NCBI GenBank assembly: GCA_018433765.1
Contig: JAHDQO010000001.1
Location: 62,001 to 126,000, forward strand
DNA: 64,000 bases
Direction: 5' to 3'
From: Tissierellales bacterium
GTDB lineage: Bacteria; Bacillota; Clostridia; Tissierellales; Sedimentibacteraceae
In this document: piece after piece, positions 1 through 46,996 of the stretch
Numbering within the stretch: the stretch's first letter is position 1
How the letters are laid out: each line of letters starts with the position of its first letter
Program-made: the position numbers and the translations under genes
The notes under the pieces: model-generated
Databases searched by the model: none
Told to the model about the DNA's origin: nothing
What the model saw: the letters and a program-made list of their open reading frames with translations, nothing else

Positions 1-1
1 A

Positions 2-229
2 TTAGCGAGGTTATTCCTAGATTTCTATGGAGATTTAACCAAATTAGAGTTACAGATGCTTGTGCCAATACTACAATTAAGGTTTTTGCCAAGAGCACAA
101 TATATTGAAGAACTAGGGAAATCTGATATAAAAAAAATTGATAATGAAATAGCATGGTCTATTAATGCATTTTATGCTATTGAAAATCAAATGACTGAAA
201 TAATTGATCTAATTTATAATTTTTTATAA
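2..229 (+). CDS. C-terminal end of a probable APH-family small-molecule kinase (partial)
   Basis: The frame is open from the left edge of the window to a TAA at 227-229 and gives about 75 residues, so only the C-terminus is visible. The helical stretch LTKLELQMLVPILQLRFL resembles the C-terminal helices of aminoglycoside-phosphotransferase or homoserine-kinase-like proteins, in which a 'LT..E...LP.l...R' pattern is common. No catalytic residue lies inside the visible part, so the family call is an inference. The stop is 12 bases before the next gene, which suggests one transcript. A second APH-like kinase follows at 2206-3135. Any helical C-terminal domain could look similar; certainty is low. 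Confidence 0.4.
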   Translation, partial: LARLFLDFYGDLTKLELQMLVPILQLRFLPRAQYIEELGKSDIKKIDNEIAWSINAFYAIENQMTEIIDLIYNFL

Positions 230-241
230 ATATTAGGAGGT

Positions 242-1426
242 ATGGATATTATTTTTAAATATCCATTAAAAGGTATGCTGGAAATAGAAAATAGATATAT
301 TTTAGATGCTATTAATCGGTTTTCGGGAATTGAAGAAAACCATATAGCAGTAATAGAATTTGAAAAAATGAATTGGGAAAATGTTTTTTCACAAGCAATA
401 AAGCATAGAATATTGCCAATTGTTTATTGTGATATGTTAAAAAATAATTATTTAAAATATATAAATAATAATTGGTATAAAGCTTTGCTTACTATTTACA
501 ATAATTCCATTAACTTAAATAAGCTATTGCTTTGTCAGGCTATTGACTTAAGTAAACAAATATTGAAGAAAAATATTTCTGCTTGCATAATAAAAGGACC
601 AGTGTTGTCAGTTTATCTGTATGAAGGTGAAGGAGTTAGACCATATAGTGATTTAGACATATTAGTTATGAAAAATTTTTTGAATGATATGAAAAGTATT
701 ATTAAAGAACAAAAATATGTACAGGGAAAATATGACAAAAAAGAAAATAAAATAATCGAAGCAACTCGTAGTGAAATTATTCAAAGAGAAATGTTTACTC
801 ATGAAAGTGTTGAATTTCATAAGATTCTTTATTTACCATTTCCGTATGATTCAGTTATTGATTTAAATCATGGAGTATCCTGGAAAGGAAATAAATTTAA
901 TCAAGTACCAGAAGGATTGACTGCAGAAATTCTATTACATGATAGAAAAGAATACAATTATGATAAAAATAACATTATTGGACTTTGTCCAGAAAATATG
1001 TTTATTCATTTATGTTTACATTTATATAGTGAATCTGTACTATTTTGTTGGCAATATAGTTGGTATAAGAATTTTAGTGATATTGAACTAATTAAATATA
1101 TTGATATTGCATTGATTTTACAAAAGAATCTTGATTGGTCACGTATAAACGAAATGGTAGAAGAATATAAAATTCAGATACCTATTAACTATGCTGTTAG
1201 TTTAACTTGTATGATATTCCCACAATTAAAGCAAAATATTAATTTGGAAACATACTTAAAACCACTTAATGAATTAGATTTTTATTTTGACAGAGAAGGG
1301 TTAATGCATAAATGGAATTATTCTTTTCTCGAGAGAATTTTTAATCAAAATTTGAGATTAAAAGATGTAAGGGAGCATACTAATCCAGAAACAATGTTTG
1401 AAAACTTTAGAGGATATAATGGATAA
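242..1426 (+). CDS. Nucleotidyltransferase-family protein (PF14907-like)
   Basis: The protein has up to 394 residues. Residues 117-141 read IKGPVLSVYLYEG...RPYSDLDILV. The 'IKG..L', 'RP.sDlDiLV' pattern, with likely metal-binding D137 and D139, is typical of the uncharacterised nucleotidyltransferase family PF14907 (the fold of DNA polymerase beta). Members transfer a nucleotide in principle, but their substrates are unknown; some occur in peptide natural-product clusters. The start is odd: AGGAGG ends at 240, only one base before the ATG at 242, which is too close for normal initiation. An in-frame ATT at 248 sits at ideal spacing, and the next ATG is at 275. The gene overlaps the following HAD gene by 8 bases, so coupled translation is likely. 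Confidence 0.6.
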   Translation: MDIIFKYPLKGMLEIENRYILDAINRFSGIEENHIAVIEFEKMNWENVFSQAIKHRILPIVYCDMLKNNYLKYINNNWYKALLTIYNNSINLNKLLLCQAIDLSKQILKKNISACIIKGPVLSVYLYEGEGVRPYSDLDILVMKNFLNDMKSIIKEQKYVQGKYDKKENKIIEATRSEIIQREMFTHESVEFHKILYLPFPYDSVIDLNHGVSWKGNKFNQVPEGLTAEILLHDRKEYNYDKNNIIGLCPENMFIHLCLHLYSESVLFCWQYSWYKNFSDIELIKYIDIALILQKNLDWSRINEMVEEYKIQIPINYAVSLTCMIFPQLKQNINLETYLKPLNELDFYFDREGLMHKWNYSFLERIFNQNLRLKDVREHTNPETMFENFRGYNG

Positions 1427-2216
1427 TAAGTTATTTGAAATAGTTTTTACAAATGATATGGCGGTATTTGATTTAGATGGGACAATTCTAGATAAAAAGG
1501 GATTATTAGATAATAATTTTGAAAATTTACTAAAGATTATTAATCTAAAGAAAATTATTGCTACGGGAAGAATTAAGGAGTCACTTATTGAAATCACTGA
1601 CTACAATAAATTAAAAGAGCTATTTGATGAAAAAGTTATATGTTACAATGGTAATGGTATTTTTAATACACAAAATAATGTTCTTTATCCTCTGAATACA
1701 ATAAATAATAATGTTTGGGAGGAAATAAAGTTTGTACAAAATAAGGATAGTTTATTAGTAATTGATTGTGGAGGAAACTTATATGCTAGTAATAGAAAGG
1801 CTGCAATATTATGCAGCCTATATTATGGGATTTCAAGTAAAAAAATCAAAATTGTAGATTTTAAAAATTTTATACCATATAATATTATGTTTATCTTAAT
1901 TGGTACAAAGGAAGAAACTCAAATTTCACTAATAAAAAAAAATAATGAAGTAAACTGTTCTAAAAAAGGTGAAGATATATATATATTTATACCTAATAAT
2001 ACTAATAAAATAAATGGTTTATATTATTTGGTACAATATTATAATATTCTATTGAAAAAAACAATTGCATTTGGAAATGATAATAATGATATAGAAATAT
2101 TATCAAAATGTAATATAGGTATTGCAATGAAAGATAGTTTCAAAGAAGTCTTAAAAGTTGCAGACTTTATTGCTTATAGTGATTCTTTAGAAGGGATAAA
2201 GATATATGATAGATGA
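1419..2216 (+). CDS. HAD-superfamily hydrolase, Cof type
   Basis: This is a 265-residue cytoplasmic phosphatase-like protein. Motif I is FDLDGT with nucleophile D18 and acid D20, motif II is ATGR, motif III is probably K in NKINGLYYL, and motif IV is GNDNNDIEIL, followed by a 'GIAMKDS...V...AD' end. These are the marks of HAD type IIB (Cof/YbiV) sugar-phosphate or cofactor phosphatases. A longer frame begins with TTG at 1398, but ATG 1419 has AGAGGA (1409-1414) at good spacing and gives an 8-base overlap with the upstream gene, so 1419 is preferred. It overlaps the next kinase gene by 11 bases. The substrate is unknown. Confidence 0.75.
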   Translation: MDNKLFEIVFTNDMAVFDLDGTILDKKGLLDNNFENLLKIINLKKIIATGRIKESLIEITDYNKLKELFDEKVICYNGNGIFNTQNNVLYPLNTINNNVWEEIKFVQNKDSLLVIDCGGNLYASNRKAAILCSLYYGISSKKIKIVDFKNFIPYNIMFILIGTKEETQISLIKKNNEVNCSKKGEDIYIFIPNNTNKINGLYYLVQYYNILLKKTIAFGNDNNDIEILSKCNIGIAMKDSFKEVLKVADFIAYSDSLEGIKIYDR

Positions 2217-3135
2217 AAGTAAAATAAAACAATTTCTTAGAACTAAATATATTAAATGTTTGAATGAAGATTCGGGAGGAAGTGTTTACAAATATTTTAG
2301 AAATGGCACTCCTTATTTATTTAAGATTTATAATGAATATTTTAATTATATGAGAGAGGTTACTACAAAACAGATTTTAATTAGGAAAGGTTTTCCAACT
2401 CCAGCTATTATAGATTTTGGAAAATATAATGACAATTACTTTATTATTCAGGATTGGTGGCATGGTACTATGCTATTAGAATTATATAATAGTTTAAGTA
2501 ATTGTATTAAAAAATCGATTATGAATGAAGTTGGAGAAGTACTTGGAAGATTGAATACTTCTGTACAAGAATGCGAATTGGAAAAAACCAATTTATGGAA
2601 ATACATTGATGGAAATATTATTAAATACCAAAATTACTCATGGAAAAACATATATTTGTTTCAAATACCTAAATGGATAAATAAAATCAATTTTAGAGCA
2701 ACTGATCCAAAGGCAAAGATCTTAGATTCATTAAATATAGTAAAGACAAAACTTGAGAATTTAGATGATAATTTACCAATTGCAATTTTGCATAGAGATT
2801 ATGGTTTTAGAAATATTATGATTAAAAACAATCATGTTCTAGGTGTAATTGATTTTGAGTATGCGACTATAGGTGATCCGGTATTTGATTTATCTAAATT
2901 GTTATTCAATGATTTGAATTATGAAAGAGATATAGAGCTAAGTAATATTTTTATTAATTCTTGGAAAAGTAAAGTTAAGAAATTTGACATAAATCGACTT
3001 AAACTCTATATGGCCATACAGGGTGGAGGGGCAATCCAATGGGTTGATAAGCAATCGCCTAAAATACAAAATCTTAATCAAAATTACAGAGAAAAGGGAA
3101 TGAAAATTTTACTGAAAATGGCTAAAGAATTATAA
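2206..3135 (+). CDS. APH-family (phosphotransferase) small-molecule kinase
   Basis: This 309-residue protein has the aminoglycoside phosphotransferase/choline kinase fold. The catalytic loop HRDYGFRN (H196, D198, N203) and the metal-binding DFE at D216, followed by GDPVFDLSKLLF, are intact. The N-terminal lobe carries a probable ATP-contacting K in YLFKIYNEY. Such kinases phosphorylate a hydroxyl on a small molecule; the family is far broader than antibiotic resistance and the substrate cannot be read here. The start ATG at 2206 has AAGGGA upstream at about 8 bases and overlaps the HAD gene, so a kinase and a phosphatase are translationally coupled, which suggests phosphorylated intermediates in one pathway. 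Confidence 0.75.
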   Translation: MIDESKIKQFLRTKYIKCLNEDSGGSVYKYFRNGTPYLFKIYNEYFNYMREVTTKQILIRKGFPTPAIIDFGKYNDNYFIIQDWWHGTMLLELYNSLSNCIKKSIMNEVGEVLGRLNTSVQECELEKTNLWKYIDGNIIKYQNYSWKNIYLFQIPKWINKINFRATDPKAKILDSLNIVKTKLENLDDNLPIAILHRDYGFRNIMIKNNHVLGVIDFEYATIGDPVFDLSKLLFNDLNYERDIELSNIFINSWKSKVKKFDINRLKLYMAIQGGGAIQWVDKQSPKIQNLNQNYREKGMKILLKMAKEL

Positions 3136-3147
3136 GAAGGTGAAGTC

Positions 3148-3912
3148 ATGGATAAAATTACTGTTGATACCCATGTCCATTCTATTACAAGTATTCATGC
3201 ATATAGCACAATTCAGGAATGTGTAAATGCTGCTAAAAAGAAGGGACTTTCAGCTATAGCTATTACAGATCACTTTGGACCACAATTTTGTTGTAAACAT
3301 TTATGGGAATCGTATAGTAGCATTTCAGGACAAAAAGAAATTCCAAACTATATTGATGGAATTAGAGTAATTAATGGTATAGAAATTGATATAGTTGATA
3401 AGGATGGACATTTGGCTTACTATAATGAGACATTTCCATATGCTTATAAAAAAGACAAGACTATTTTAGAAAGAATTTTGGAAAATAAAGAACTTGTCAT
3501 TGCAAGTAGACATGAGTTTGATGAAGAATTTAGCATGGAAGAAAATACAAAAATGTATATCGAAATTCTTAAGAATCCACAAGTAGATATTTTAGGACAT
3601 TGTGATAGAGTACGTAACTTATTTAACATTGATAATGTTCTAGAAACTGCATATAAATATAAAAAGATAATAGAGATTAATGAGATGTCTTTGAATAAAA
3701 GTAAAAAGCAGTATGAATATTGCAAGAAAATTGCTCGACTATGTGCTCAACTAGGATGTTTTATTTCATTGGGTAGTGATTCGCATAATGCATTTCAAAT
3801 AGGAAATTTCATTAGAAGTTATAAATTGTTAAATGAAATAGATTTTCCCGTTAATTTAATTGCTAATTTAAATTTAGAAAGATTTTATAATATAGCTAAT
3901 TTTAAAATATAA
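3148..3912 (+). CDS. PHP-domain metal-dependent phosphoesterase
   Basis: This 254-residue protein begins with the PHP signature: DTHVHS (D7, H9, H11), then AITDHFGP, IEIDIVD, ASRHEFDE, GHCDR, and near the C-terminus SDSHNAFQIG. These residues bind two or three metal ions in the YcdX / histidinol-phosphatase (HisK) type of PHP enzymes, which hydrolyse phosphomonoesters. No histidine-biosynthesis genes are nearby, so histidinol phosphate is unlikely to be the substrate. AGAAGGTGA precedes the ATG, and the gene follows the kinase by 12 bases, so it is part of the same operon. It is the second phosphatase in this set. Confidence 0.75.
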   Translation: MDKITVDTHVHSITSIHAYSTIQECVNAAKKKGLSAIAITDHFGPQFCCKHLWESYSSISGQKEIPNYIDGIRVINGIEIDIVDKDGHLAYYNETFPYAYKKDKTILERILENKELVIASRHEFDEEFSMEENTKMYIEILKNPQVDILGHCDRVRNLFNIDNVLETAYKYKKIIEINEMSLNKSKKQYEYCKKIARLCAQLGCFISLGSDSHNAFQIGNFIRSYKLLNEIDFPVNLIANLNLERFYNIANFKI

Positions 3913-4130
3913 TAATTTAATTAAATCATAATAGTCAATAAGTATTTTAGAATAAATAGTAGTAAAATATTTTATATCTTATCTAACTTTATTTAAAATA
4001 ATATAATAAAGTACTAGAATATGTACTGTTAATATTAATTAGTTAATAAAAATGAAATAATTAACAATTTATTAGTTTTATGTAGTTAATTTGTAATTTT
4101 AATATAAAATTTATTGAAAGGAAATATTTT
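3913..4130 (+). other. AT-rich gap before the ligase gene
   Basis: These 218 bases are almost entirely A and T. I see no coding frame, no strong hairpin followed by T's, and no clear -35/-10 pair. A weak ribosome site (GAAAGGAA) precedes the ATG at 4131. The gap breaks the otherwise overlapping gene set, so the ligase may have its own promoter. Confidence 0.4.
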
Positions 4131-5255
4131 ATGATATTATTATATATTAAGTTAGACAAGCCTTTATGTAAAGAGGTAGAAAGAAAAATAGGCTTTATAT
4201 CACAATATATTATTAATTATACAATAAATAAAGAACAATTAATTTTAAACTTAGAAGAATGTTGTAATAAAGATAAGATTTATGATGAAATTTCAAAATT
4301 AGTTAAGAGTGATACTAATGACAATTCTGAGATAATTTATACTAAAATTTATGATGTGAAATACGTTACTGACAATAATATATTGCAGTCAGGAATTGTG
4401 AAAAAATATGACAAGGGAATGATTTATTTAAATGAAATTGGTTTATTACTTTATAATTTTTTTGATAATTGTTTTAAAGAACTAATATACGATTATAACC
4501 TTAAAATTAGAAAATACCCAACATTATTACCAATAACCACATATAAGGACACAAATTATCTGAGAAGTTCACCACAATATGCAATTCTATGTAAAAGCGT
4601 AATAGAAGATATGGAAAATTATAAAGATAATACTAATATCGAGCATTACAAATTGGCGCCTGCTTTATATGCGTTATCACCATCTGCATGCTTCCATTTA
4701 TATGAAGAACTTAGAAATAAAGAACTTAAGAAAAATACTGTGTTTACATTTCGTCAAAATGTTTTTCGCAATGAAGGTCGATTTAATTGGAACGAAATAA
4801 CACGAATGCGTGATTATAATGTACGTGAAATAGTATTTATAGGTGATTATGAATTTGTAAATTCTGTACGAGAAAATATTCTACATAGGACAAAAAATTT
4901 AGTAGAAAATCTTGGATTGAATTACCAAATTTGTGTAGCATCTGATCCATTTACAATTCCTAAGATGTTGAAATATAAAAAAATACAAATAGCTAATAAA
5001 CTAAAGTATGAAATAAGATTAAATGTAAGTGAGAATGAAAGGGTTGCTTGTGGATCGTTTAATTTGCATGGTTATAATTTTTCTAAATCTTTCAATTTTT
5101 CAGTAGCAGGACAAGATACAGTATCTGGATGTATAGGTTTCGGAATAGAAAGGTGGATAATATGTTTTTTAAAGCAATATGGATGTAATAAAAACAAATG
5201 GCCTAAAAGAGTTAAAGAATATATTTATCCTAAAACTAAAAATATTAATAATTAA
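4131..5255 (+). CDS. Class II aminoacyl-tRNA-synthetase-like amino acid:carrier-protein ligase
   Basis: This 374-residue protein carries a class II synthetase catalytic core without a tRNA-binding domain. Motif 2 is VFRNEGRF (R213), and motif 3 is SGCIGFGIERW (R341). Between them are VREIVFIG and ASDPF, the patterns of amino acid:[carrier protein] ligases, which are related to the atypical zinc-dependent seryl-tRNA synthetases. The three zinc ligands of that group appear conserved: C187 (SPSACFHLY), E215 (RNEG) and C334 (SGC). The known enzymes activate small amino acids with ATP and load them on the phosphopantetheine of a carrier protein. No carrier-protein gene is visible here. Part of the AT-rich island with two phosphatases, kinases and a nucleotidyltransferase. 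Confidence 0.75.
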   Translation: MILLYIKLDKPLCKEVERKIGFISQYIINYTINKEQLILNLEECCNKDKIYDEISKLVKSDTNDNSEIIYTKIYDVKYVTDNNILQSGIVKKYDKGMIYLNEIGLLLYNFFDNCFKELIYDYNLKIRKYPTLLPITTYKDTNYLRSSPQYAILCKSVIEDMENYKDNTNIEHYKLAPALYALSPSACFHLYEELRNKELKKNTVFTFRQNVFRNEGRFNWNEITRMRDYNVREIVFIGDYEFVNSVRENILHRTKNLVENLGLNYQICVASDPFTIPKMLKYKKIQIANKLKYEIRLNVSENERVACGSFNLHGYNFSKSFNFSVAGQDTVSGCIGFGIERWIICFLKQYGCNKNKWPKRVKEYIYPKTKNINN

Positions 5256-5489: not shown

Positions 5490-6866
5490 ATGGAAATTAA
5501 TAACATTTCTTCATATTTAAAATGTATGAAGGAATACACTGAACTTAGAGTTCAAGAAAATAACAACATGAGGATAACACTAGTTAACGGTAATGTTGTT
5601 AGTAATCAAAAGTTTTCAAAAGGCGGAGTAAGTGCAAGAGTAAATATGGGAGGTTATTGGGGTTTTTCTTCAAATCCTGAGGTAAAAGATGAAACTATAA
5701 AATTAGTAATTGATGAAGCCAATCAAAATGCTAAATATCTATTTGACATTAATGAAGAAATACCTTTTAATTTAGATAAGGAGAAAATATCAGAGCATAA
5801 AGATTTTAAAACTAAAAAAGAAAGATGGTCTCAAAATCAAATAATGAATTTCTTAAAAGAGATTGATACATATATATTAAATAAATATCCTAATGTAAGT
5901 AGGAGAATTAATTTAAATAGTATAGATGTTGAGAAAACGTTATTAACATCTAATGGAACAGAAAGTTATCTGTATTGGCCTGGGACATGGCTGATCATTG
6001 AATTAACAGTAAAAAAGGAAAACGTTCCTTATGTACTCTATCAATCTAACGGAGGTCTAGGTAACTTTGAAGATAATTTTGATAAACCAGAAAATCTTTA
6101 TTCTAAAATTGATGAATTATACAAAAAAGTTATAAATAAAAGCGAAGGAGTTTATGCTCAAGCAGGAGAAAAAGAATGTATTTTAGATGCAAACCTTGCA
6201 GGAATCTTGGCTCATGAAGCAATAGGTCATACTTTAGAAGGAGATTTAGTTATAAATGGATCAGTAGGAGGACCGAACTTAAACAAAAAAGTAGCAAGTG
6301 AACTGATCACTTTGATTGATTGTGCTAATACATATAGAGGAGAACCTTGTCCTGTTCCATTATATATTGATGATGAAGGAACTAAAGCAGAAGATGCAGT
6401 GCTTATTGAAAATGGTGTATTGAAGAGTTTTATGAATAACAAAGAAACTGCTAACGTATTAAAGATGGAGTCTACTGGAAATGCAAGAGCATTTGAATAT
6501 AGTGATGAGCCACTTGTTCGTATGAGAAATACTATAATTGTACCTGGAAAAGATAAATTTGAGGATATGATTGCTTCTATAGATGATGGTTACTATTTTG
6601 TAAAATCTGGTAATGGACAAGCCGATTTAACTGGTGAATTTATGTTTGCTATTGTAGAAGGATACGAAATTAAAAATGGTAAAATAGGTAAAGCAATAAA
6701 AGATACAACAATTTCTGGAGTTGCTTTTGATGTACTTAAATCAGTAACTATGATTTCAGATGACATGAAATGGAATTCAAGTGGTATGTGCGGAAAGAAA
6801 CAGAGCATTAATGTTAGTATGGGTGGACCTGCTATTAAATGTAAAATTAACGTAGGAGGTAGATAA
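5490..6866 (+). CDS. tldD: TldD-family metalloprotease, catalytic subunit
   Basis: This 458-residue protein has the TldD zinc motif HEAIGH at residues 242-247, the HExxxH form typical of this family (U62 peptidases), followed by EGD. TldD works as a heterodimer with TldE/PmbA to degrade or trim small unfolded peptides; in enterobacteria the pair matures microcin B17 and degrades CcdA antitoxin. The TTG at 5481 directly abuts AAAGGAG, whereas ATG 5490 lies 9 bases from it, so 5490 is taken as the start. The partner gene begins two bases after the stop codon. The cytoplasmic substrate in this organism is unknown. Confidence 0.88.
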   Translation: MEINNISSYLKCMKEYTELRVQENNNMRITLVNGNVVSNQKFSKGGVSARVNMGGYWGFSSNPEVKDETIKLVIDEANQNAKYLFDINEEIPFNLDKEKISEHKDFKTKKERWSQNQIMNFLKEIDTYILNKYPNVSRRINLNSIDVEKTLLTSNGTESYLYWPGTWLIIELTVKKENVPYVLYQSNGGLGNFEDNFDKPENLYSKIDELYKKVINKSEGVYAQAGEKECILDANLAGILAHEAIGHTLEGDLVINGSVGGPNLNKKVASELITLIDCANTYRGEPCPVPLYIDDEGTKAEDAVLIENGVLKSFMNNKETANVLKMESTGNARAFEYSDEPLVRMRNTIIVPGKDKFEDMIASIDDGYYFVKSGNGQADLTGEFMFAIVEGYEIKNGKIGKAIKDTTISGVAFDVLKSVTMISDDMKWNSSGMCGKKQSINVSMGGPAIKCKINVGGR

Positions 6867-6867
6867 A

Positions 6868-8160
6868 ATGATTCAGAATGAAATCCTTGAATATACAAGA
6901 AAAGTCTTTGAAAAAGAAGGAGCAGATAAGTATCAATGCTCTATAGTAAGAACAAAAAAGCAAGAGTTAACAGTTGATATGGGTATGATGAGAATGCTCC
7001 GAACTACTCTTGATGACAGCTTAAGATTATTGATGATAAAAGAAAATAGGAAGGCACAAATTATTATAAATAAAACAGATAAAAAGTCGATTGATGATGC
7101 AGTGATGACTTTAAATGAACTGCTTCAAACTGCTGAAGTTGATAAAGCATATGATATTTCACCTAAACAAGAGGCTAAAACGTTTAAATTAGGTAAGGAA
7201 GAGGCAGATATAAAAGAATTATGTGATTTTGTTAAGGAATTTACAACTAATTTAAAAGAAAAATATCCTCTAATTAAGTATCAATTTAATTTTTCTTTTG
7301 ATTATAAACAAGAGTTATTCGTTAACAGTAATGGAGTCGAATTTATTGAAAAGAATGGAGCATATAACTTTGACATATTATTTATGGCTAATGATGGTGT
7401 AAAAACCACATCTTTTAATGGTACCGAAGGATCAATGAGAGAACTAAAGGGAAAATTATTAGATTTTGCACTAGTTGAAGATGGATTAAAGCAGTCAATT
7501 AAAGAACTTAATGCAAAGGCATTTGAAGGAAAATTTGTAGGTGATGTGCTTATAATACCAGAATGCTTTGATGATTTGTTAACACAATTAGCACAAGTTA
7601 GCTTAGAAGATAATTCGTTAATATCAAATACTAGTGTTTTTAGAGATAAAATTGGTGAAGAAGTATTTTCACCATTGTTTACATGGTACACAAACCCTGT
7701 TTCAGAAGAAATATGTGATGGAAGTGCAATAACAATAGATGGCTTTGAAACTAAAAATATGTCAATAGTAGAAAATGGAATATTAAAGAATTACATGTTA
7801 ACACAATATGGTGCTAATAAAACTGGACTTAAACGCTCAGAAAGTTATGGAGGCTCATTTGAAGTTGAGGCTGGAGACAAGACCTATGAAGAAATGATAA
7901 AAGGAATCGACAAAGGTATTTTATTATGTAGATTTTCAGGTGGTAGAATATCACCTAGTGGAGATTTTTCCGGTATAGCTAAAAATAGTTTTTATATTGA
8001 AAATGGAAAAATTAAGTATCCTATAACTGAAACAATGATTTCAGCAAATTTTATAGATATGCTAAAAAATATTAAAACTATATCAAAAGAGAGAGTAAAT
8101 TTAGGCTATTCAATAATGCCTTGGGTATTAGCTACTGGAGCAACTATTTCTGGTAAATAA
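6868..8160 (+). CDS. tldE: TldE/PmbA-family protease partner subunit
   Basis: This 430-residue protein is the second half of the TldD/TldE pair. It shares the overall PmbA fold (VEAGDKTYEEMIKGIDKGIL, FSGGRISPSGDFSG near the C-terminus) but has no HExxxH motif, as expected for the non-catalytic subunit that lines the proteolytic chamber. AGGAGG lies inside the end of tldD, about 9 bases before the ATG, so the two are co-translated in equal amounts. A good terminator hairpin follows at 8232-8264, closing a two-gene operon. Confidence 0.85.
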   Translation: MIQNEILEYTRKVFEKEGADKYQCSIVRTKKQELTVDMGMMRMLRTTLDDSLRLLMIKENRKAQIIINKTDKKSIDDAVMTLNELLQTAEVDKAYDISPKQEAKTFKLGKEEADIKELCDFVKEFTTNLKEKYPLIKYQFNFSFDYKQELFVNSNGVEFIEKNGAYNFDILFMANDGVKTTSFNGTEGSMRELKGKLLDFALVEDGLKQSIKELNAKAFEGKFVGDVLIIPECFDDLLTQLAQVSLEDNSLISNTSVFRDKIGEEVFSPLFTWYTNPVSEEICDGSAITIDGFETKNMSIVENGILKNYMLTQYGANKTGLKRSESYGGSFEVEAGDKTYEEMIKGIDKGILLCRFSGGRISPSGDFSGIAKNSFYIENGKIKYPITETMISANFIDMLKNIKTISKERVNLGYSIMPWVLATGATISGK

Positions 8161-36927: not shown

Positions 36928-39900
36928 ATGTTAAAAAGAATAGGAATTATTATGCTGTGTATTTTATTGGCACTTTCTGGATGCAGTAAAAAAAATAATG
37001 ATGTTCCAGAAAAGATAGAACCTGAAGAACAGCCAATTGAATATCAACCAACAAGTGCAGACTCAAGTCCAAAAGATTCATATACTTTGACTGCTGAGAG
37101 TGCAGATTCTAGGGGTATTGATATTAATACATCTTTTAAATTACATACTGAAAATGAAAAAGAAAAAGAATTTATTGAACAAAACTTAAGAATACTACCA
37201 GAGCAAGAATTTAAAGTTGAAGAAGTTTCAAAAAAGGAATTTAACATTATTCCATTAACATCACTTAAAAACAACGCAGTATACAAAGTTGAAATGGAAT
37301 TACCAAATTCGAGCAAAAACTATTCATGGGCATTTCAAACAAAGAAACAATTTGAAATAACAGGCACACTACCCTCAAATGATAGTATGTATGTTCCATT
37401 AGATAGTGGTATAGAAATATATTTTACATATGATAATGTTGAAAAAATTGATGAGTATTTTGAAATAGAGCCTAAGGTAGAAGGAAAATTTGTATATGAT
37501 AGAAATACAGCAGTATTTGTACCTGATAAACTTTATGAAAACACAACATATACAGTAAAGATAAAAGAAGGTTTAGGTGTAAAAAATAGTGCATTAAAAA
37601 TGGACGAAGGATATACATTTTCTTTTACTACAATAGAAGAAGATCAGTATTTCTTCTTTAATTCTAAGGGTATAATATATAATTTTACTGAAGAACAAAG
37701 CCCTGTTATTTCTGTGGGGTTGTCTAAAGAATTAGCTAATGAAGAATTTGATATAAATATATATAAATATAATTCTGCGGATGAAATGTTAAAGGATATA
37801 GAAGAATATGAGAAAACTCACAGTTTTGAGCTATATAAAGAAGGAATACCATCAAATTTAAGTAAAGTTCAGTCATTTAATCAAACACCTATTGAAATAA
37901 AGAAAGGATATTCTAGCTTCTATATTTTCACAATACCTGAAAAGATAGAAAAAGGACATTATTTAGTAGAATATATTAATAAAGATAAAAAATATTATCA
38001 TTATATACAAATAAATAATTTATTAGTGTACAATGCAGGTTTTGATAAAGAACAAATAACATGTGTATCAGATAGTAGAACTAATGTACCTATTGTAAAT
38101 GCAAACGTTCAAGTAGAAGACAGTGAAATTGTTAAAACAAATGGTGATGGCATTGCTGTGACAAACTATGTTGAAGAGAAAAATATATATTATTATAACC
38201 ATTGTCAGAATTTTACGGTTGAGGCAGAAGGATATGAAAAATTTATAGGCAGAAGTCCAAGCGATATATATTATGGCTATTATGGATTTGAAAATGTTAA
38301 AGATTCACAAGAATATTGGAAATATATGTATACGGATAGATCGAAATATCTTCCTGACGACACTATAAACATATGGGGTTATATTAATCCTAAAACAGGA
38401 GAACCTCCTAAAAATCTTAAGCTGCACCTTATATCAGACGGATGGGGGAAACATGAAATAGATGTGAAAGAAGTCAAATTGTCAAGCATAGGCACTTTTG
38501 AAGGAAGTTTTTCTTTTGAAGGACTTACACCTGGATCTTATTATATATGTTTAAGAAGTGGAGAAAATGATATAATTTGTTCACAAATGGATGTATGCGA
38601 ATATACTAAACCGTTATATAAACTTAGTGGTGGATTTAATAAAGAATATATATCTTTAGGAGAAAGTATAAAATTTAATGTAGAGTGTAACTTTTTTGAT
38701 GGTACACCGGTTTCGAGTATTGATTTAGGTCTTAATTATTATTCTTATAGAATAGAAAATAGCTCAGAATTTAATAAAACTAATAAAGACGGCAAGAGTG
38801 AAATAGTAGTAACTCCAGAAACAAGTGATACGTCGTGGTACCCTATAAATATAAATTGCGAAATATATAATAAAAATGCTGAAGATCAGGAAGTTCGAAT
38901 AATTGATAATTTTACTTTATTACCTAAAGATAAAATGATAGAGATAGAAATGCATGAAGAAAGTGAAGATCAATATGCTGAAATACTTTTTCATGAGCTT
39001 GATTCAAGTAAGTATAATAAAAATAAAGATTTCCAATACAAAGATATGAGAGGTGTGCCTTTAGATGAAACACTTCATTTGAAAATCACAGAAGAATATT
39101 ATGTTAAGACTCTTAACAATGAGTATTACGATTATATAAACAAAGTTAATAAAAAAATATACGATTATGAACAACGCTCTAGGATTATAAGGGACGAAGA
39201 TATTAATACAGTAAATGGGAGATTTATATTAGACTGCAATAGCATGAAGAATTCCAACAGCAACTATGAAATAGAAGTTTCATATAAAGAAAATGAAAAT
39301 AAAATTGTAGAACATGAACATTATAGATACTCATATAGAGGAAGTACTAGTAGCGATAAAGAAGATTTTTATTCGTTAGAAATAGAAGAGGATATAGAAA
39401 AAGAACGAAAATTAAAAACTGATGAGACATACAACTATTATTTAGCATGTAATGATTATAAAGTAGAAAGTACACAAAATGATAGATTATTAGTTCTAAC
39501 AATGCAAAAAGGTCTCTTGGATTATGAAATTTTAGAAGATACTCAAGGAGTATTTAAGTTTGAAGAAAAACATATACCTGATGTATATCTAAAAGGTATA
39601 TATATAAATGATGGTAAGCTAATAATAGCTGAACATTATGAACATGTTATATATGACTATTCTGAAAGAAACATTAATTTTAAGGTTGAGACAGATAAAG
39701 AAGATTATAAGCCCGGTGATGAAGTAACGCTTAATATAGAAGCTAAAGACAATGATGGGAATCCATGTATAGCAGATATTAATGTGAGTGTAGTTGATGA
39801 AGCATTTTTTGCAATGTATAACTCAGAAGCAAATCCATTAAAGAGTATATATGCTCATAAGTATATAACAGGAATGCTATATGAGTTTACTTCTTACGAA

Positions 39901-41814
39901 GATATAGGTCTGGATTATAGAGGTATGGCAGAAAAAGGCGGTGGTGGTGATAATTATGTTGTAAGATATGATTTTAAAGATAACGCATTGTTCAAATCTC
40001 TAAAAACTAATTTAAATGGCAAAGCAACAGTGAAATTTAAGTTACCTGATAATTTAACTTCATGGAGAATAACCTATCAAGGTGTAAGTGATAAAATGTA
40101 CGCAGGTTCAGGTAAAATTAATATTAATACAAAACTTCCGTTCTTTGTAGATACTATATTAGGTAAAACGTATATAACTAAAGATAACCCATGCATAACA
40201 ATACGAACTTTTGGTGAACAGGTAAATAAAGATGATGAAATTTCTTATGTCATTGAATCAGTACATGAAGGTAACGTAAATAAGAAAACTATAGGACAAA
40301 AAGGGAAAGCAGGAGAGTATACAAATATAAAGCTGGGAAAACTTCAAAAAGGTAAATACAAGGTAACTGTATACGCATCCAATGAGCAGTATAAAGATGC
40401 AGTAGAGCAGGAATTTGAAGTTGTTGATTCAACAGTATACTTTTCTCATAAAAAATATTATAAAGTATCAAATAACATGAAGTTTAGTAAAGTGTATTCA
40501 AATGCAGAAGTGATTTTTTTCAACGAGAGCGACTCGAGATTTTTTGAATGCTTAAATGATTTAATATATGGTTATGGTTATAGATTAGATCAATTACTTG
40601 CAGATGAAATAGCTTATAATTATTTGGTGGAAAACTTTGATTATGAAAATTATACAACAAAAAAACAATCATACAAAGATTATCAAATGAACGATGGAGG
40701 TATAGGAATTTTAAAATATGCTTCATCTGATGCGGAATTTAGTGCTAAAATTGCTAGTTTAACACATGATGAATTCAATAACGAAAAACTCAAGAACTAT
40801 TTTATGAGCATTTTAGAAGATCACGATTCGGACTCAATAAGTGTAGCAGCAGCATATTGGGGATTGAGTACTTACAATGAACCTTTATTACTAAATATAT
40901 ATGAATTATTAGAAACAACAGAGCTTGGATATAAAGAAAAACTATACCTTGCATTAGCTTTGGCTGAATATGGAGATATAGATGGAGCTGAAAAGATATT
41001 TAGAGAAAATAATTTTATTAAACATATTACAGATACAGCTTTTGTAGATTATGATGAAGATGAAACAAATAATCTTGAGGCAACTGCTTTATCAGCTGTA
41101 CTAGCTTTGAAACTTCAAGATTATGAAATAGGTGATAAGTTATTTAATTATATTGCAGAAAAAGATTCAGATTATATTCTCACAAATATTGAAAAATTAA
41201 TATATATATTAAATAGAAACATAATGGAGACTGAACAAATTAAAGCTCTTAAAGGAGAATTAACAGTTAAAATAGGAGGAGAAACGAAGAAAATAGAATT
41301 AAACTATACTAAACCTGAGAGTGTTTATGTTACCGCAAAAGAACTTCAAAATATAAAGATAAGCAATGTAAAAAGTGATATAGGCTGTTATGTTAAAGCA
41401 TTAGGCGGAGTAAATGATTTAAAAGAAAGCAAAACAGAATTATACACTATTGAGAAAAAATATAAAGTTAAAGAAGAGTATAAAACAACATTTAAACAAT
41501 CTGATTTGGTTGAGGTTATTGTTTTTCCACACTTTACTGAAGATGCAGATACAGGTTATTATCAAATTACAGATTTTGTACCTGCAGGTTTTAGATATGT
41601 AAGAGGAAAGGAATCACATGTATCAATTCCTATTGAACAATCAGGACAAAAATTAGTGTTTAGATATAATCATAGCAAAGATACATATAAAGCTATAACA
41701 TACTATATTCAAGCAGTACAACCGGGAACATATACATCAGACCATACAGTAATTAAACGATTCATAGGTACTGATTTAAACTATACAGAACAGGAAGAAT
41801 TGGTAATTAATTGA
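36928..41814 (+). CDS. Giant alpha-2-macroglobulin-like lipoprotein without thioester motif
   Basis: This 1628-residue protein has a lipoprotein signal (LLALSGCSKK, C19). Residues 100-235 contain Ig-like 'Big' domains (YVPLDSGIEIYFTYDNVEK, PDKLYENTTYTVKI), followed by macroglobulin domains (LTPGSYYICLRSGEN, YKPGDEVTLNIEAKDNDG), and from about 1070 a C-terminal half typical of bacterial alpha-2-macroglobulins (NLTSWRITYQGVSDKMYAG, helical alpha-alpha barrel, final receptor-like domain). Family members trap attacking proteases by a GCxEQ thioester. Here the equivalent place reads GYGYRLDQ (1215-1222), so cysteine is lost and covalent trapping is unlikely. It would sit on the outer membrane face. 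A MEMO-like lipoprotein follows. Confidence 0.78.
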   Translation: MLKRIGIIMLCILLALSGCSKKNNDVPEKIEPEEQPIEYQPTSADSSPKDSYTLTAESADSRGIDINTSFKLHTENEKEKEFIEQNLRILPEQEFKVEEVSKKEFNIIPLTSLKNNAVYKVEMELPNSSKNYSWAFQTKKQFEITGTLPSNDSMYVPLDSGIEIYFTYDNVEKIDEYFEIEPKVEGKFVYDRNTAVFVPDKLYENTTYTVKIKEGLGVKNSALKMDEGYTFSFTTIEEDQYFFFNSKGIIYNFTEEQSPVISVGLSKELANEEFDINIYKYNSADEMLKDIEEYEKTHSFELYKEGIPSNLSKVQSFNQTPIEIKKGYSSFYIFTIPEKIEKGHYLVEYINKDKKYYHYIQINNLLVYNAGFDKEQITCVSDSRTNVPIVNANVQVEDSEIVKTNGDGIAVTNYVEEKNIYYYNHCQNFTVEAEGYEKFIGRSPSDIYYGYYGFENVKDSQEYWKYMYTDRSKYLPDDTINIWGYINPKTGEPPKNLKLHLISDGWGKHEIDVKEVKLSSIGTFEGSFSFEGLTPGSYYICLRSGENDIICSQMDVCEYTKPLYKLSGGFNKEYISLGESIKFNVECNFFDGTPVSSIDLGLNYYSYRIENSSEFNKTNKDGKSEIVVTPETSDTSWYPININCEIYNKNAEDQEVRIIDNFTLLPKDKMIEIEMHEESEDQYAEILFHELDSSKYNKNKDFQYKDMRGVPLDETLHLKITEEYYVKTLNNEYYDYINKVNKKIYDYEQRSRIIRDEDINTVNGRFILDCNSMKNSNSNYEIEVSYKENENKIVEHEHYRYSYRGSTSSDKEDFYSLEIEEDIEKERKLKTDETYNYYLACNDYKVESTQNDRLLVLTMQKGLLDYEILEDTQGVFKFEEKHIPDVYLKGIYINDGKLIIAEHYEHVIYDYSERNINFKVETDKEDYKPGDEVTLNIEAKDNDGNPCIADINVSVVDEAFFAMYNSEANPLKSIYAHKYITGMLYEFTSYEDIGLDYRGMAEKGGGGDNYVVRYDFKDNALFKSLKTNLNGKATVKFKLPDNLTSWRITYQGVSDKMYAGSGKININTKLPFFVDTILGKTYITKDNPCITIRTFGEQVNKDDEISYVIESVHEGNVNKKTIGQKGKAGEYTNIKLGKLQKGKYKVTVYASNEQYKDAVEQEFEVVDSTVYFSHKKYYKVSNNMKFSKVYSNAEVIFFNESDSRFFECLNDLIYGYGYRLDQLLADEIAYNYLVENFDYENYTTKKQSYKDYQMNDGGIGILKYASSDAEFSAKIASLTHDEFNNEKLKNYFMSILEDHDSDSISVAAAYWGLSTYNEPLLLNIYELLETTELGYKEKLYLALALAEYGDIDGAEKIFRENNFIKHITDTAFVDYDEDETNNLEATALSAVLALKLQDYEIGDKLFNYIAEKDSDYILTNIEKLIYILNRNIMETEQIKALKGELTVKIGGETKKIELNYTKPESVYVTAKELQNIKISNVKSDIGCYVKALGGVNDLKESKTELYTIEKKYKVKEEYKTTFKQSDLVEVIVFPHFTEDADTGYYQITDFVPAGFRYVRGKESHVSIPIEQSGQKLVFRYNHSKDTYKAITYYIQAVQPGTYTSDHTVIKRFIGTDLNYTEQEELVIN

Positions 41815-41870
41815 ATGGAGAAATGAGAATGGAGAATTAAGGGATAGTTTTCCGTGTTCTTCCGTGGTCA
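41814..41870 (+). repeat. Short copy of the dispersed repeat
   Basis: GAATGGAGAAATGAGAATGG, then GAGAATTAAGGGATAGTTTTC and CGTGTTCTTCCGTGG: the two ends of the 27.4-27.67 kb repeat joined with the middle part missing. It fills the gap between the alpha-2-macroglobulin and MEMO-like genes; the stop codon of the former overlaps its first bases. Confidence 0.75.
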
Positions 41871-41884
41871 ATTAGAGGAGTTTT

Positions 41885-42766
41885 ATGAAAAAGATTAAAT
41901 TTTATATAATTAGCCTGATAGTCATTTTATTACTATCAGGCTGTAATAGTGTTATTGAAGATGAGAAGACGATTAATTATATTAAAAACAAATCTTCTCT
42001 TGAATGTATTTATTTTAGTGAAGAAGATTTTGTTAATATAAAGCAGTTCGAAACTAAGCATAAAATAGACGGAGAAATAAAAGGAGGAATAATACCTCAT
42101 CATCTCCTAGCTAAAGATATAATTCATGAATTTTTTAGAACTGTACAATCAAATAAATATGATTTAATAGTATTAATAGGCCCTGACCATAAGAGCAAAG
42201 ATGGGAAAAGAGTATTAACAACCTTAAAAGACTGGCAGACTCCATTTGGAGTACTTGAGACAGATAAAGAGATAACTAAAGATCTTATAAATAAAAATAT
42301 ACTAACTAAAGAAGACGATAAAATGGAAAAAGAACATTCAGTTGCGTCATTAGTTTCTTTTGTGAAATATTATTTTCCAGATTGCAAGGTTGTTTCTGCT
42401 GCATTATCATGTTACCTAGACATGAAAGATATCAAAGTTTTATCTGATAGTATTTATGAAGAAATAAAAGACAGGAGAGTTTTGATAATTGCATCAGTTG
42501 ATTTTTCACATTATTTATCATATGAAGAAGCTAATAAAAAAGATAAGATAACTAAACAAGCATTATTAGATAGGGATATAAGAAAAATATATTCTTTTAC
42601 TAATGATAATATGGATTCACCAGAAACTATTATTACACTACTTAATATTATGAAAGAACTGAAATTTAATAAAGAAACGATTTTACGAAATTTAAATTCA
42701 TTTGATATAGTTAAAAAAAGCAATGAAGGAACAACCAGTTATTTTAGTGTTGTTTATTATAAATAG
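41885..42766 (+). CDS. MEMO1 / AmmeMemoRadiSam protein B-like lipoprotein
   Basis: This 293-residue protein has a lipobox (ILLLSGCNS, C20) and the MEMO1 fold motifs: GGIIPHHLLAKDII, LIGPDHKSKDG, a conserved EHSVASLVSFVKYYFP, and VDFSHYLSYEEANKKD. The histidines in IPHH, GPDH, EHS and DFSH match the putative metal site of the MEMO / class III extradiol dioxygenase-like fold. Its partners in the AmmeMemoRadiSam system (AMMECR1 domain and a radical SAM protein) are not in the window, and export by a lipoprotein signal is unusual for a cytoplasmic-type enzyme. GAGGAG precedes the ATG, and a strong terminator follows. Confidence 0.77.
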   Translation: MKKIKFYIISLIVILLLSGCNSVIEDEKTINYIKNKSSLECIYFSEEDFVNIKQFETKHKIDGEIKGGIIPHHLLAKDIIHEFFRTVQSNKYDLIVLIGPDHKSKDGKRVLTTLKDWQTPFGVLETDKEITKDLINKNILTKEDDKMEKEHSVASLVSFVKYYFPDCKVVSAALSCYLDMKDIKVLSDSIYEEIKDRRVLIIASVDFSHYLSYEEANKKDKITKQALLDRDIRKIYSFTNDNMDSPETIITLLNIMKELKFNKETILRNLNSFDIVKKSNEGTTSYFSVVYYK

Positions 42767-42794
42767 CCAGCTAACTTTAATTAGCTGGCTATTT
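42761..42794. terminator. Bidirectional terminator
   Basis: AAATAGCCAGCTAA, loop CTTTAA, TTAGCTGGCTATTT: a perfect 14-bp stem overlapping the TAG stop of the MEMO-like gene and serving the convergent DUF6612-like gene as well. Confidence 0.85.
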
Positions 42795-42805
42795 ATATAA
42801 TTTAG

Positions 42806-43762
42806 TTAAACTCCGTACGGCATTTCCATTTCTTTAGCGTCAAGTGCTTCTTGAGGTATTTCAAAATCTTCACAATTATTTATATTATCGTAATATACTT
42901 CTGTTTTACCTTTCATGCTGCCAAAAGTATTGCTGATTTCATTTTTTACTTCTTCTGTTAATGATTCATCTTCCATTAAAACACTTTTTATTCCTTCGAA
43001 CATAGGCTGCATATCAGCAGATAATTTAATCATACTGTAGTCTTCTTTTGAAAACCAAATTTCATATACAACATTTTCTAAAGAAGCAATAAGTTTATTC
43101 ATTAATTCCTCTTGGTTGCCATCAGGTAAAAATGTTTCATTTAAACCATATTGATTAAGTAATTCTGTCATATATTCAGAATTCAGTTTATATTGAGCTT
43201 TATAAGCTTCAACACCATCAACTGTTTCTTCGCCTATAATTTCGCCACTCTTATAAAATTTTTCATATTCTTTTATATAATCAAGACCTTGTAATTGCTG
43301 ATTAGCCAGTTCAGGATTATCAATTACTGATTTAAACCATTCACCCATACTGTATTGATATATTATATATTTACCATCTTCAGCTACCATATATTGTTCC
43401 ATAGTTTGTTTTTCTGGAACAAATGCATCTTCATTTGCATTTTCATCTTCAAGGCTATAATTAATTTCTATATTTGTTTTAGATTTCAATGGTTCTACAA
43501 ATATTATACTATTAGAATCCATATGAACATTAATAGCAACATTTTCACCAGTTTCCATATTAGGCATAAACATTGTCATGTCCATTAATTGTTTCATTTC
43601 TAAATTTTCAACTTTACTATATAGTTCAGATGATTTTTGTATAAGCTCCATAGCTTCAGGATATATATCCTCTAGTTCTTCTGTTTTAGCATCATTTTGA
43701 CATCCACATGCTATTATAAATAAACCAATTATTATTGACAATAGCATAAGTTTCTTTTTCAT
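42806..43762 (-). CDS. DUF6612-like lipoprotein
   Basis: This 318-residue protein has a lipoprotein signal (GLFIIACGCQND; C in ACGC or the next cysteine) and an extracellular domain with MELIQKSSELYSKVENLEMKQLMDM, NIEINYSLEDENANED and VYEIWFSKEDYSMIKLSADMQP. This 'substrate lipoprotein' pattern, a helix followed by a beta half-barrel reminiscent of LolA/LppX folds, is what Firmicute DUF6612 proteins show. The function is not known; carrying a hydrophobic molecule is a guess from the fold. It is a single gene with GGAGG upstream on the minus strand. Confidence 0.65.
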   Translation of the reverse strand: MKKKLMLLSIIIGLFIIACGCQNDAKTEELEDIYPEAMELIQKSSELYSKVENLEMKQLMDMTMFMPNMETGENVAINVHMDSNSIIFVEPLKSKTNIEINYSLEDENANEDAFVPEKQTMEQYMVAEDGKYIIYQYSMGEWFKSVIDNPELANQQLQGLDYIKEYEKFYKSGEIIGEETVDGVEAYKAQYKLNSEYMTELLNQYGLNETFLPDGNQEELMNKLIASLENVVYEIWFSKEDYSMIKLSADMQPMFEGIKSVLMEDESLTEEVKNEISNTFGSMKGKTEVYYDNINNCEDFEIPQEALDAKEMEMPYGV

Positions 43763-43980
43763 TTTTTTGTATCCTCCAATAAATTTTTATGTTTAACATC
43801 TCTATATAATCTAACAAATTATATCTAATTATGCAATAGACAATTTAAAATTGTATAAATAATAATAGAGTAAAATAATAGTATTTATAGAATGTTTTAT
43901 GTACAAGGAATTGCTGTGTATTATACAGCTTATTTTTAGATTTCAATTAAAAAATGTTACAGAAAACGTTTCTAAAGTAC

Positions 43981-44009
43981 TTGAAGTTTAACCCATTTTA
44001 ATATAAAAT
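43981..44009 (+). promoter_or_regulatory. Promoter of the EF-G-like gene
   Basis: TTGAAG (43981-43986), 17 bases, TAAAAT (44004-44009). The start codon lies about 35 bases further on. Confidence 0.6.
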
Positions 44010-44051
44010 ATACTAAAAGTTAAATGCAGAAATAAGTTAGGAGGAAAGTAG

Positions 44052-46112: not shown

Positions 46113-46150
46113 TTATTAAATTCAAAATGCAAAATTAAAAAAAATAATTA

Positions 46151-46176
46151 AAAGCCGCAAAGTTGCGGCTTTTTTC
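46151..46176 (+). terminator. Terminator after the EF-G-like gene
   Basis: AAAGCCGC, loop AAAGTT, GCGGCTTT, followed by TTTT. Confidence 0.85.
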
Positions 46177-46179
46177 CAT

Positions 46180-46260
46180 TAATTCTCAATTCTCAATTCT
46201 CAATTCTCATTTCTCATTTCTCTTTTCTCATTTCTCACTTCTCATTTCTCAATTTTTTTT
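46180..46260 (+). repeat. TTCTCA-type pyrimidine minisatellite
   Basis: Roughly twelve imperfect units of (A/T)(A/T)TTCTCA in tandem, ending in TTTTTTTTCTT. One strand is almost pure pyrimidine apart from single A's. The same words occur inside the long inverted repeats (36.22-36.25 kb). Confidence 0.8.
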
Positions 46261-46450
46261 CTTATAATATTTTATATAATTTAGTAAAAAATAAAAACAG
46301 TTCATTTATTTTTTCTTTTTATTCAAATTAAACTAAGTAGTAAATAAAAGATAAATTAAGGAAATTTAAGAAAAATTAAGAAAAAGAATAATGTTTACAT
46401 ATAAATTAAAATAACGTCTCTAAAATTAAAAATATGGTAATAAATAACAG

Positions 46451-46478
46451 TTGCACATATAAAATCAAGTGATATAAT
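46451..46478 (+). promoter_or_regulatory. Promoter of the ctsR operon
   Basis: TTGCAC (46451-46456), 16 bases, TATAAT (46473-46478). The CtsR operator starts 13 bases after the -10 box, covering the expected transcription start. Confidence 0.7.
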
Positions 46479-46490
46479 TAAAGTCAGGAA

Positions 46491-46520
46491 AGGTCAAAGT
46501 CAAAGGCAAAGAAAGTCAAA
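46491..46520 (+). promoter_or_regulatory. ctsR: CtsR operator (heptad direct repeats)
   Basis: The CtsR consensus is two RGTCAAA heptads three bases apart. AGGCAAA-GAA-AGTCAAA (46504-46520) fits with one mismatch, and two more heptads (GGTCAAA at 46492, AGTCAAA at 46498) lie directly upstream. The operator runs up to the AGAGGTG ribosome site of ctsR, so binding should block both start and elongation of transcription, giving autoregulation. Confidence 0.8.
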
Positions 46521-46531
46521 GAGGTGATTCT

Positions 46532-46996
46532 ATGGCGAAACTTAGTGACATAATAGAAGGATTTATAAAAGAAATGATAGAAGATGCAGAAGATAATATG
46601 ATAGAAATTCAAAGGAATTTATTAGCACATCAATTTGACTGTGCTCCATCGCAAATTAATTATGTACTTACAACTAGATTTAATAATGACAGAGGATATA
46701 TTATAGAAAGCAGAAGAGGTGGAGGTGGGTATGTAAAGATATACAAAATACCTATTTCGAAAAATAATCATATTGAAAATATATTAAATAAAAGTATAGG
46801 AGAAAGCATAACAAAATCTAAAGCATATGATTTACTAGATACTTTCTACGAAAATGGAATGATTAATGAGAGAGAGCAAAACATAATAAAAAGAGCTTTA
46901 AGTGATAGAGCATTAGCCAAAATATACTACGATGACAGAAACAAATTACGAGCGGATATTTTTAAAGAAATACTGCTAGTACTACTAAATGAATAA
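46532..46996 (+). CDS. ctsR: Heat-shock repressor CtsR
   Basis: This 154-residue protein starts AKLSDIIEGFIKEMIEDAE, has the winged-helix part (LAHQFDCAPSQINYVLTTRFNNDRGYIIESRRGGGGYVKI) with the glycine-rich thermosensing wing, and a C-terminal dimerisation and McsB-interaction part. CtsR represses clp genes and is inactivated at high temperature, then removed by McsB and ClpC. The operator in front of the gene and the order ctsR-mcsA-mcsB-clpC are standard for Firmicutes. Unusually, 178 bases of repeat DNA separate it from mcsA. Confidence 0.95.
   Translation: MAKLSDIIEGFIKEMIEDAEDNMIEIQRNLLAHQFDCAPSQINYVLTTRFNNDRGYIIESRRGGGGYVKIYKIPISKNNHIENILNKSIGESITKSKAYDLLDTFYENGMINEREQNIIKRALSDRALAKIYYDDRNKLRADIFKEILLVLLNE

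What the first reader, a model, noticed from the sequence alone, without database searches (positions are those of the whole stretch)
2..5255. Orphan amino acid:carrier-protein ligase in a kinase/phosphatase/nucleotidyltransferase island
Seen: a class II synthetase core with no tRNA-binding part, motifs RNEG and GFGIERW, and three candidate zinc ligands (C187, E215, C334), next to a PF14907-like nucleotidyltransferase, a HAD and a PHP phosphatase and one or two APH-type kinases with overlapping starts. Known: related enzymes load small amino acids on carrier proteins. Inference: a pathway making an aminoacylated or nucleotide-activated, phosphorylated small molecule or modified peptide. The carrier protein is absent here and may lie left of the window or elsewhere. 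This combination is the best candidate for an undescribed biosynthetic system in the window.
Basis: partly seen in the sequence, partly recalled or inferred. Interest (0 to 1): 0.62.

Follow-up and report, generated by a model that had tools for sequence, protein, structure and literature searches.

The report
tRNA-synthetase-like ligase ending an NRPS cluster
The odd enzyme is a tRNA-synthetase-derived ligase that charges a small carrier protein, and it is the last gene of a 29-kb peptide-antibiotic gene cluster lying mostly left of the window, where it may supply the amino acid for an assembly-line module that cannot pick its own; what such ligases are for is an open question.

Summary
The ligase (4131-5255) best matches the glycine:carrier-protein ligase of Bradyrhizobium by sequence and fold, not a true SerRS or HisZ. 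The third zinc ligand is probably E233, not E215. The island is the tail of a larger cluster, C13:38435-67255 (ending at window 5255), all on one strand: LoaP antiterminator with its UUCG hairpin, PPTase, TEII, NRPS1 (C-A[Asn]-T-E), a ClbP/ZmaM-like D-Asn prodrug peptidase fused to an ABC exporter, NRPS2 (C-A[Ser]-T-C-A[aromatic]-T-C-T-TE, last module without an A domain), ACP, myo-inositol-phosphate-synthase-like (MIPS), archaeal-type MAT, HPr-kinase-like, APH, PF14907, HAD, APH, PHP, ligase. MIPS+MAT recur as a cassette in a Bacilli genome and two plasmids, without ligase or ACP. Ten actinobacterial-type relatives place the ligase before a C-domain protein lacking an A domain. Best reading: the ligase charges the ACP, and/or the A-less module, in trans for a short prodrug peptide carrying phospho-cyclitol-type decoration. 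TldD/TldE are backbone. Product and aminoacyl acceptor are inferred.

The parts
1..229 (+). 3' end of APH-type kinase 1 (gene is C13:61231-62229; the rest lies left of the window). Left-flank members of the cluster (LoaP to HPrK-like) are listed with contig coordinates in the full report.
   Evidence: PF01636 3.5e-18 for the whole protein
242..1426 (+). PF14907 'nucleotidyltransferase' (NT5; PsmN-like class)
   Evidence: E 3.5e-30
1431..2216 (+). Cof-type HAD-IIB phosphatase
   Evidence: PF08282 8.5e-31
2206..3135 (+). APH-type kinase 2
   Evidence: PF01636 3.1e-19
3148..3912 (+). PHP phosphatase, YcdX-like
   Evidence: PF02811 1.4e-14; 1m65 2.6e-30
4131..5255 (+). amino acid:carrier-protein ligase (aaRS-derived); Zn ligands C187, E233 (probable), C334

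Best explanation
The ligase is a class II aaRS-derived amino acid:carrier-protein ligase and the last gene of a LoaP-type NRPS cluster (C13:38435-67255). Proposed mechanism: (1) NRPS1 starts an N-acylated chain with D-Asn (A code plus E domain shown; acyl starter inferred). (2) NRPS2 adds Ser, then an aromatic residue. (3) Its last module is C-T-TE without an A domain; the ligase activates a small amino acid with ATP and charges the separate ACP and/or that T domain, so the C domain adds a fourth unit in trans. (4) The HPrK-like kinase and the PF14907 protein phosphorylate and cap the peptide, plausibly at Ser, with a cyclitol phosphate made by the MIPS-like enzyme; archaeal-type MAT, APH kinases and HAD/PHP phosphatases serve the side chemistry or self-protection. 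(5) The peptidase-exporter removes acyl-D-Asn on export. Shown: genes, domains, codes, carrier, fold. Inferred: steps 3 to 5, and that all genes act together.
For: Ligase identity and fold. ACP in the same run of genes; in close relatives an ACP gene is adjacent in most loci, and in L041 ACP and ligase read as one ORF. LoaP with a UUCG hairpin in the leader, as in LoaP-controlled antibiotic operons (PMC12691694). No terminator-like site from the end of NRPS2 through the ligase on the + strand. A-less C-T-TE module with full-length C, T and TE. In 12 more distant relatives a C-domain protein lies just downstream of the ligase, in 10 of them without an A domain in the same frame; three tested are T-C-AT. 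D-Asn code plus ClbP-like peptidase-exporter. HPrK plus PF14907: PsmK phosphorylates Ser and PsmN installs hexose on it in pseudomycoidin (PMC9266682); PF14907 lies near ligases in several genera. The genome has two normal MetK besides the archaeal-type MAT, so that enzyme is dedicated.
Against: ACP and ligase flank an eight-gene block and are set off by gaps of 475, 135 and 218 nt, so they might form a second unit. The MIPS-aMAT cassette occurs elsewhere without NRPS, ACP or ligase. Close ligase relatives mostly use BtrH-like acyltransferases rather than C domains; none lies in this cluster. No methyltransferase or other obvious SAM user is seen. The terminator scan has little power in 26% GC DNA. 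No orthologous whole cluster was found.
Confidence: 0.5

Rival explanations
1. Two neighbouring systems: an ordinary prodrug NRPS cluster, and a separate ACP-to-ligase operon in which the charged ACP delivers an amino acid to a cyclitol or sugar phosphate, as proposed in general for this ligase family (aminoacylation of a cell-surface sugar derivative).
For: 475-nt gap before the ACP; the MIPS/aMAT/HPrK/APH set exists without NRPS in Parageobacillus and a Bacilli genome; close ligase relatives sit with ACP, BtrH-like acyltransferase and ABC-2 exporter without NRPS C domains; note in proof of PMC2922099.
Against: The A-less last NRPS module would stay unexplained; no BtrH-like transferase is near (the only one in the genome is on another contig); no terminator-like site before the ACP.
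Confidence: 0.3
2. The MIPS/archaeal-MAT cassette makes a carbocyclic (aristeromycin-like) nucleoside or nucleotide, with kinases and phosphatases tuning its phosphorylation; the ligase aminoacylates it.
For: The MIPS is 38% identical to the Ari2-type five-membered-cyclitol-phosphate synthase 6k96 and shares its TPEL motif; sister cassettes carry NDK-like proteins, NUDIX, SDRs, SurE and nucleotide-kinase-like genes.
Against: The own clade is equally close to Ino1 (38%) and the tree does not settle it; no NDK-like gene was found in this genome and no nucleobase genes were seen in the cluster.
Confidence: 0.15
3. The ligase is a diverged or resistant SerRS kept for translation or self-protection, not a carrier-protein ligase.
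For: The SerRS model also matches (1.1e-28) and 3w3s is the first fold hit by E-value.
Against: End-to-end fold match only to carrier-protein ligases, no recognisable tRNA-binding domain, carrier in the same run of genes, ACP-ligase single ORF in a relative.
Confidence: 0.03

Closest known systems
Amino acid:[carrier protein] ligases (Bll0957 type, Bradyrhizobium; PDB 3mey, 4h2s)
   Same: Catalytic core, Cys/Glu/Cys zinc site, small dedicated carrier protein
   Different: Only about 22% identical in the structural alignment; keeps an extra N-terminal domain; sits at the end of an NRPS cluster with an A-less module
N-acyl-D-Asn prodrug NRPS pathways (zwittermicin ZmaM, edeine, colibactin ClbP)
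   Same: A domain with Asn code plus E domain, ClbP-like membrane peptidase, here fused to an ABC exporter
   Different: Short NRPS with an A-less last module, followed by a cyclitol/kinase block and an aaRS-type ligase
Pseudomycoidin/paeninodin tailoring pair (PsmK HPrK-like, PsmN annotated nucleotidyltransferase)
   Same: HPrK-like kinase and nucleotidyltransferase-type protein encoded together
   Different: Those act on ribosomal lasso peptides; no lasso precursor or cyclase was seen here; that PsmN is PF14907 is from memory
Aristeromycin Ari2 and Ino1 (MIPS family)
   Same: Same enzyme family, 38% identity to each
   Different: Own clade, beside archaeal-type MAT in all four members seen; product unknown
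LoaP-controlled antibiotic operons (difficidin, macrolactin)
   Same: LoaP gene beside the cluster, UUCG hairpin in the leader
   Different: NRPS rather than PKS; control not tested

Membership tests
Amino acid:carrier-protein ligase | Class II aaRS core most like Bll0957, without a tRNA-binding domain | tested here: met
   a ~100-aa N-terminal domain of unknown role remains
Amino acid:carrier-protein ligase | Zinc site Cys-Glu-Cys | tested here: met
   C187, E233, C334 invariant in 20 relatives and aligned with Bll0957; ligand identities in Bll0957 from memory; metal not tested
Amino acid:carrier-protein ligase | Cognate carrier protein nearby | tested here: met
   ACP at C13:57287-57541; nearby rather than adjacent
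Amino acid:carrier-protein ligase | Charges a carrier protein with a small amino acid, not tRNA | not testable with these tools
   needs enzyme assay
N-acyl-D-Asn prodrug NRPS | First module with Asn code and epimerisation domain | tested here: met
   DLTKIGEVGK; second HHxxxDG domain after T has the E-type motif RTVGWFT
N-acyl-D-Asn prodrug NRPS | ClbP/ZmaM-type membrane peptidase | tested here: met
   E 4.3e-72 to ClbP, match covering its membrane part too
N-acyl-D-Asn prodrug NRPS | Starter C domain adding a fatty acid | not tested
   An N-terminal C domain is present; its subtype was not examined
LoaP-controlled operon | LoaP gene and UNCG leader hairpin | tested here: met
LoaP-controlled operon | LoaP-dependent expression | not testable with these tools
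   needs transcription assays
Aristeromycin-type carbocyclic pathway | MIPS member of the Ari2 type | tested here: inconclusive
   38% to both Ari2 and Ino1; own clade, unresolved tree
Seryl-tRNA synthetase | tRNA-binding domain and end-to-end SerRS fold | tested here: not met
BtrH-type aminoacyl transfer system | BtrH-like transferase near ACP and ligase | tested here: not met
   only copy is on contig C33, unlinked

The most novel reading that the evidence does not exclude
A hybrid assembly line in which a tRNA-synthetase descendant replaces the adenylation domain of an A-less NRPS module, joined to a horizontally moving cyclitol/archaeal-MAT cassette that puts a phosphorylated cyclitol (or carbocyclic nucleotide) on the peptide; the product class and the chemistry of the MIPS/archaeal-MAT cassette are undescribed.
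Probability: 0.25. Interest if true: 0.8.

Novelty: new variant of a known kind. Interest (0 to 1): 0.6.

Why it matters
[quoted passage not shown] This cluster, with the actinobacterial ligase/T-C-AT pairs, gives a direct and testable role: charging carriers for condensation domains that have no adenylation partner. The MIPS/archaeal-MAT cassette, found in Clostridia, Bacilli and on two plasmids (one conjugative), looks like a separate biosynthetic module whose product is unknown.

Tried and rejected
Ligase homologues in the 26 other genomes of the own family: none; in the class 5 of 390 others. Whole-cluster orthologues among 80 ligase loci from 84,980 species genomes: none with MIPS or MAT by tblastn, and 17 of those genomes, searched whole, have no archaeal-type MAT. 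The only BtrH-like protein of the genome is unlinked. TldD/TldE (5490-8160) rejected as cluster members: orthologous pairs stand in relatives without the cluster. NDK-like gene sought in the own genome: none. MIPS tree did not separate inositol from five-ring synthases. PF14907 protein has no solved relative by sequence. Literature on MIPS plus archaeal-type MAT clusters: nothing found. Leader folding as a whole is not unusual (z -1.07); only the UUCG element is. In L018 a ligase lies next to a MIPS of another branch, among transposases; not relied on.
Full report
Observation. The 2-229 ORF is the tail of a 332-aa APH kinase whose gene begins left of the window. The ligase's best curated model is 'amino acid--[acyl-carrier-protein] ligase' (2.4e-35; the archaeal-type SerRS model follows at 1.1e-28; neither reaches its equivalog cut-off). 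Its best solved relatives are the Bradyrhizobium Gly:CP ligases, then archaeal SerRS. An AlphaFold model built with 20 sequences (pLDDT 88.9) matches those ligases over their whole length (target TM 0.83, rmsd 2.9 A) and SerRS only over the core (target TM about 0.5, rmsd 9.5 A), although one SerRS chain has the best E-value. C187 and C334 are right; the third zinc ligand is probably E233 (aligned with residue 176 of Bll0957, ligand identity from memory) and not E215, the motif-2 Glu. All four residues are invariant in 20 sequences.

The carrier protein. The window is C13:62001-126000 of its assembly. Reading left, an 84-aa ORF at C13:57287-57541 has a phosphopantetheine site (LDYDSMQI; PF00550, 4.3e-5, over the cut-off). 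Between it and the window lie a myo-inositol-phosphate-synthase-like enzyme (MIPS), an archaeal-type methionine adenosyltransferase (aMAT) and an HPr-kinase-like protein. The genome has two ordinary MetK genes, and none of 390 other genomes of the class has the archaeal type.

Left-flank members, contig C13 coordinates, all + strand (window position = C13 position minus 62000): LoaP 38435-38941; UUCG leader hairpin core 38978-38985; PPTase 39108-39800; type II thioesterase-like 39788-40540; NRPS1 40527-45017; peptidase-ABC exporter 45071-48151; NRPS2 48148-56811; ACP 57287-57541; MIPS-like 57677-58759; aMAT 58965-60176; HPrK-like 60245-61234; APH kinase 1 61231-62229. Then the window genes follow to the ligase at C13:66131-67255.

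The cluster. LoaP (205.7 bits, cut-off 125) is followed by a leader with a GC-UUCG-GC hairpin (once in 20 kb, 0.03 expected) and a stem followed by a T-run, the layout described for LoaP-controlled antibiotic operons (PMC12691694). Then come a PPTase, a TEII, NRPS1 (C-A-T-E), a class-C-beta-lactamase-like peptidase fused to a cyclic-peptide exporter, and NRPS2. Read against GrsA, the A codes are DLTKIGEVGK, DVWHFSLIDK and DASTLAAICK, i.e. Asn, Ser and an aromatic residue (assignment from general knowledge of codes). The peptidase is closest to ClbP, including its membrane part. D-Asn plus such a peptidase is the acyl-D-Asn prodrug scheme of zwittermicin and edeine (PMC9889270). The last NRPS2 module is a complete C domain followed directly by a T domain and a thioesterase, with no A domain. 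No terminator-like site was found on the + strand from the end of NRPS2 to the ligase. TldD/TldE after the ligase are backbone genes, since orthologous pairs stand in relatives without the cluster.

Comparative evidence on the ligase. A scan of 84,980 species genomes kept the 80 best of 263 confirmed relatives (best identity 47%), and none had MIPS or archaeal-type MAT nearby. The closest 21 loci carry the ligase usually with an ACP, and often with ABC-2 exporters and BtrH-like acyltransferases; the PF14907 family lies within about 2 kb upstream in six distinct loci plus a near-duplicate. In L041 ACP and ligase form one ORF. In the more distant loci, 12 have a C-domain protein just downstream of the ligase, 10 of them with no A domain in the same frame; three examined are T-C-AT proteins. 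Ligases of this family therefore repeatedly stand where an A domain is missing. This supports, but does not prove, the same role here.

Comparative evidence on the cassette. MIPS and archaeal-type MAT stand together in a Bacilli genome (54% and 57% identical), on a Parageobacillus caldoxylosilyticus conjugative plasmid (55% and 51%) and on a Paraburkholderia plasmid (46% and 40%). HPrK-like, APH, HAD or PHP genes recur in some of them; none has the ligase, ACP or NRPS in the stretches read. These three also carry SDR, NUDIX and NDK-like genes. The MIPS clade is 37-45% identical to both Ino1 and the Ari2-type enzyme, so its product is open. The cassette is thus a module of its own that was combined here with an NRPS and a ligase.

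Mechanism. Most likely the ligase charges ACP or the A-less T domain in trans and the terminal C domain adds that amino acid to acyl-D-Asn-Ser-aromatic. HPrK-like and PF14907 proteins then phosphorylate and cap the peptide, by analogy with PsmK and PsmN (PMC9266682), with a cyclitol phosphate as the candidate cap. The exporter-peptidase removes acyl-D-Asn. Genes, domains, codes, carrier and fold are shown; the acceptor, the amino acid, the cap and the joint action are inferred. The main rival is that the NRPS and the ACP-to-ligase block are neighbours with separate products. An earlier view of this ligase family proposed aminoacylation of a cell-surface sugar derivative (PMC2922099).

Verdict. 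A real, richer system than reported: a new variant of known kinds (prodrug NRPS; aaRS-derived carrier ligase), with an undescribed cyclitol/archaeal-MAT module. No paper on that combination was found in the library searched, which does not hold most subscription journals.

Noticed in passing
L109:5355-20189 (NZ_CP040554.1, Parageobacillus caldoxylosilyticus conjugative plasmid): MIPS + archaeal-type MAT cassette with PqqD, HAD, split DegT, SDR, HPrK-like, NDK-like, SurE, APH, NUDIX and MFS genes; interrupted by an IS256 element.
   Followed up: partly
L110:7594-14105 (Paraburkholderia sp. PGU19 plasmid) and L138:1550-8971 (G700): Same MIPS + archaeal-type MAT pair with SDRs, NDK-like, NUDIX and phosphatases; unannotated in the Paraburkholderia plasmid table.
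   Followed up: partly
L111, L142 (Streptomyces plasmids), L141 (Candidatus Megaera plasmid): Archaeal-type MAT next to IolE-like isomerase, Gfo/Idh oxidoreductase, NUDIX and kinase genes; looks like a more distant branch of the same chemistry.
   Followed up: no
L053, L056, L062, L068, L073, L076, L080, L091: Actinobacterial carrier-protein ligases directly before C-domain proteins without an A domain (three tested are T-C-AT); probably an NRPS/PKS loading device worth its own study.
   Followed up: partly
L138:2802-3833, L109:16841-17845, L110:12659-13522: An NDK-like protein family with a conserved NxxHxS motif and no Pfam match; weak NDK hits in the PDB (E 0.01).
   Followed up: partly
L006:15010-15172 (C13:57010-57172, left of the window): The 475-nt gap before the ACP holds a short open stretch without a start codon that reads like a protein remnant (...LSPQSITNNYSIKYSVRVGRCVVLCKGL...).
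   Followed up: no
window 5490-8160: TldD/TldE pair, one of several copies in this genome; orthologous pairs in relatives lack the cluster.
   Followed up: yes
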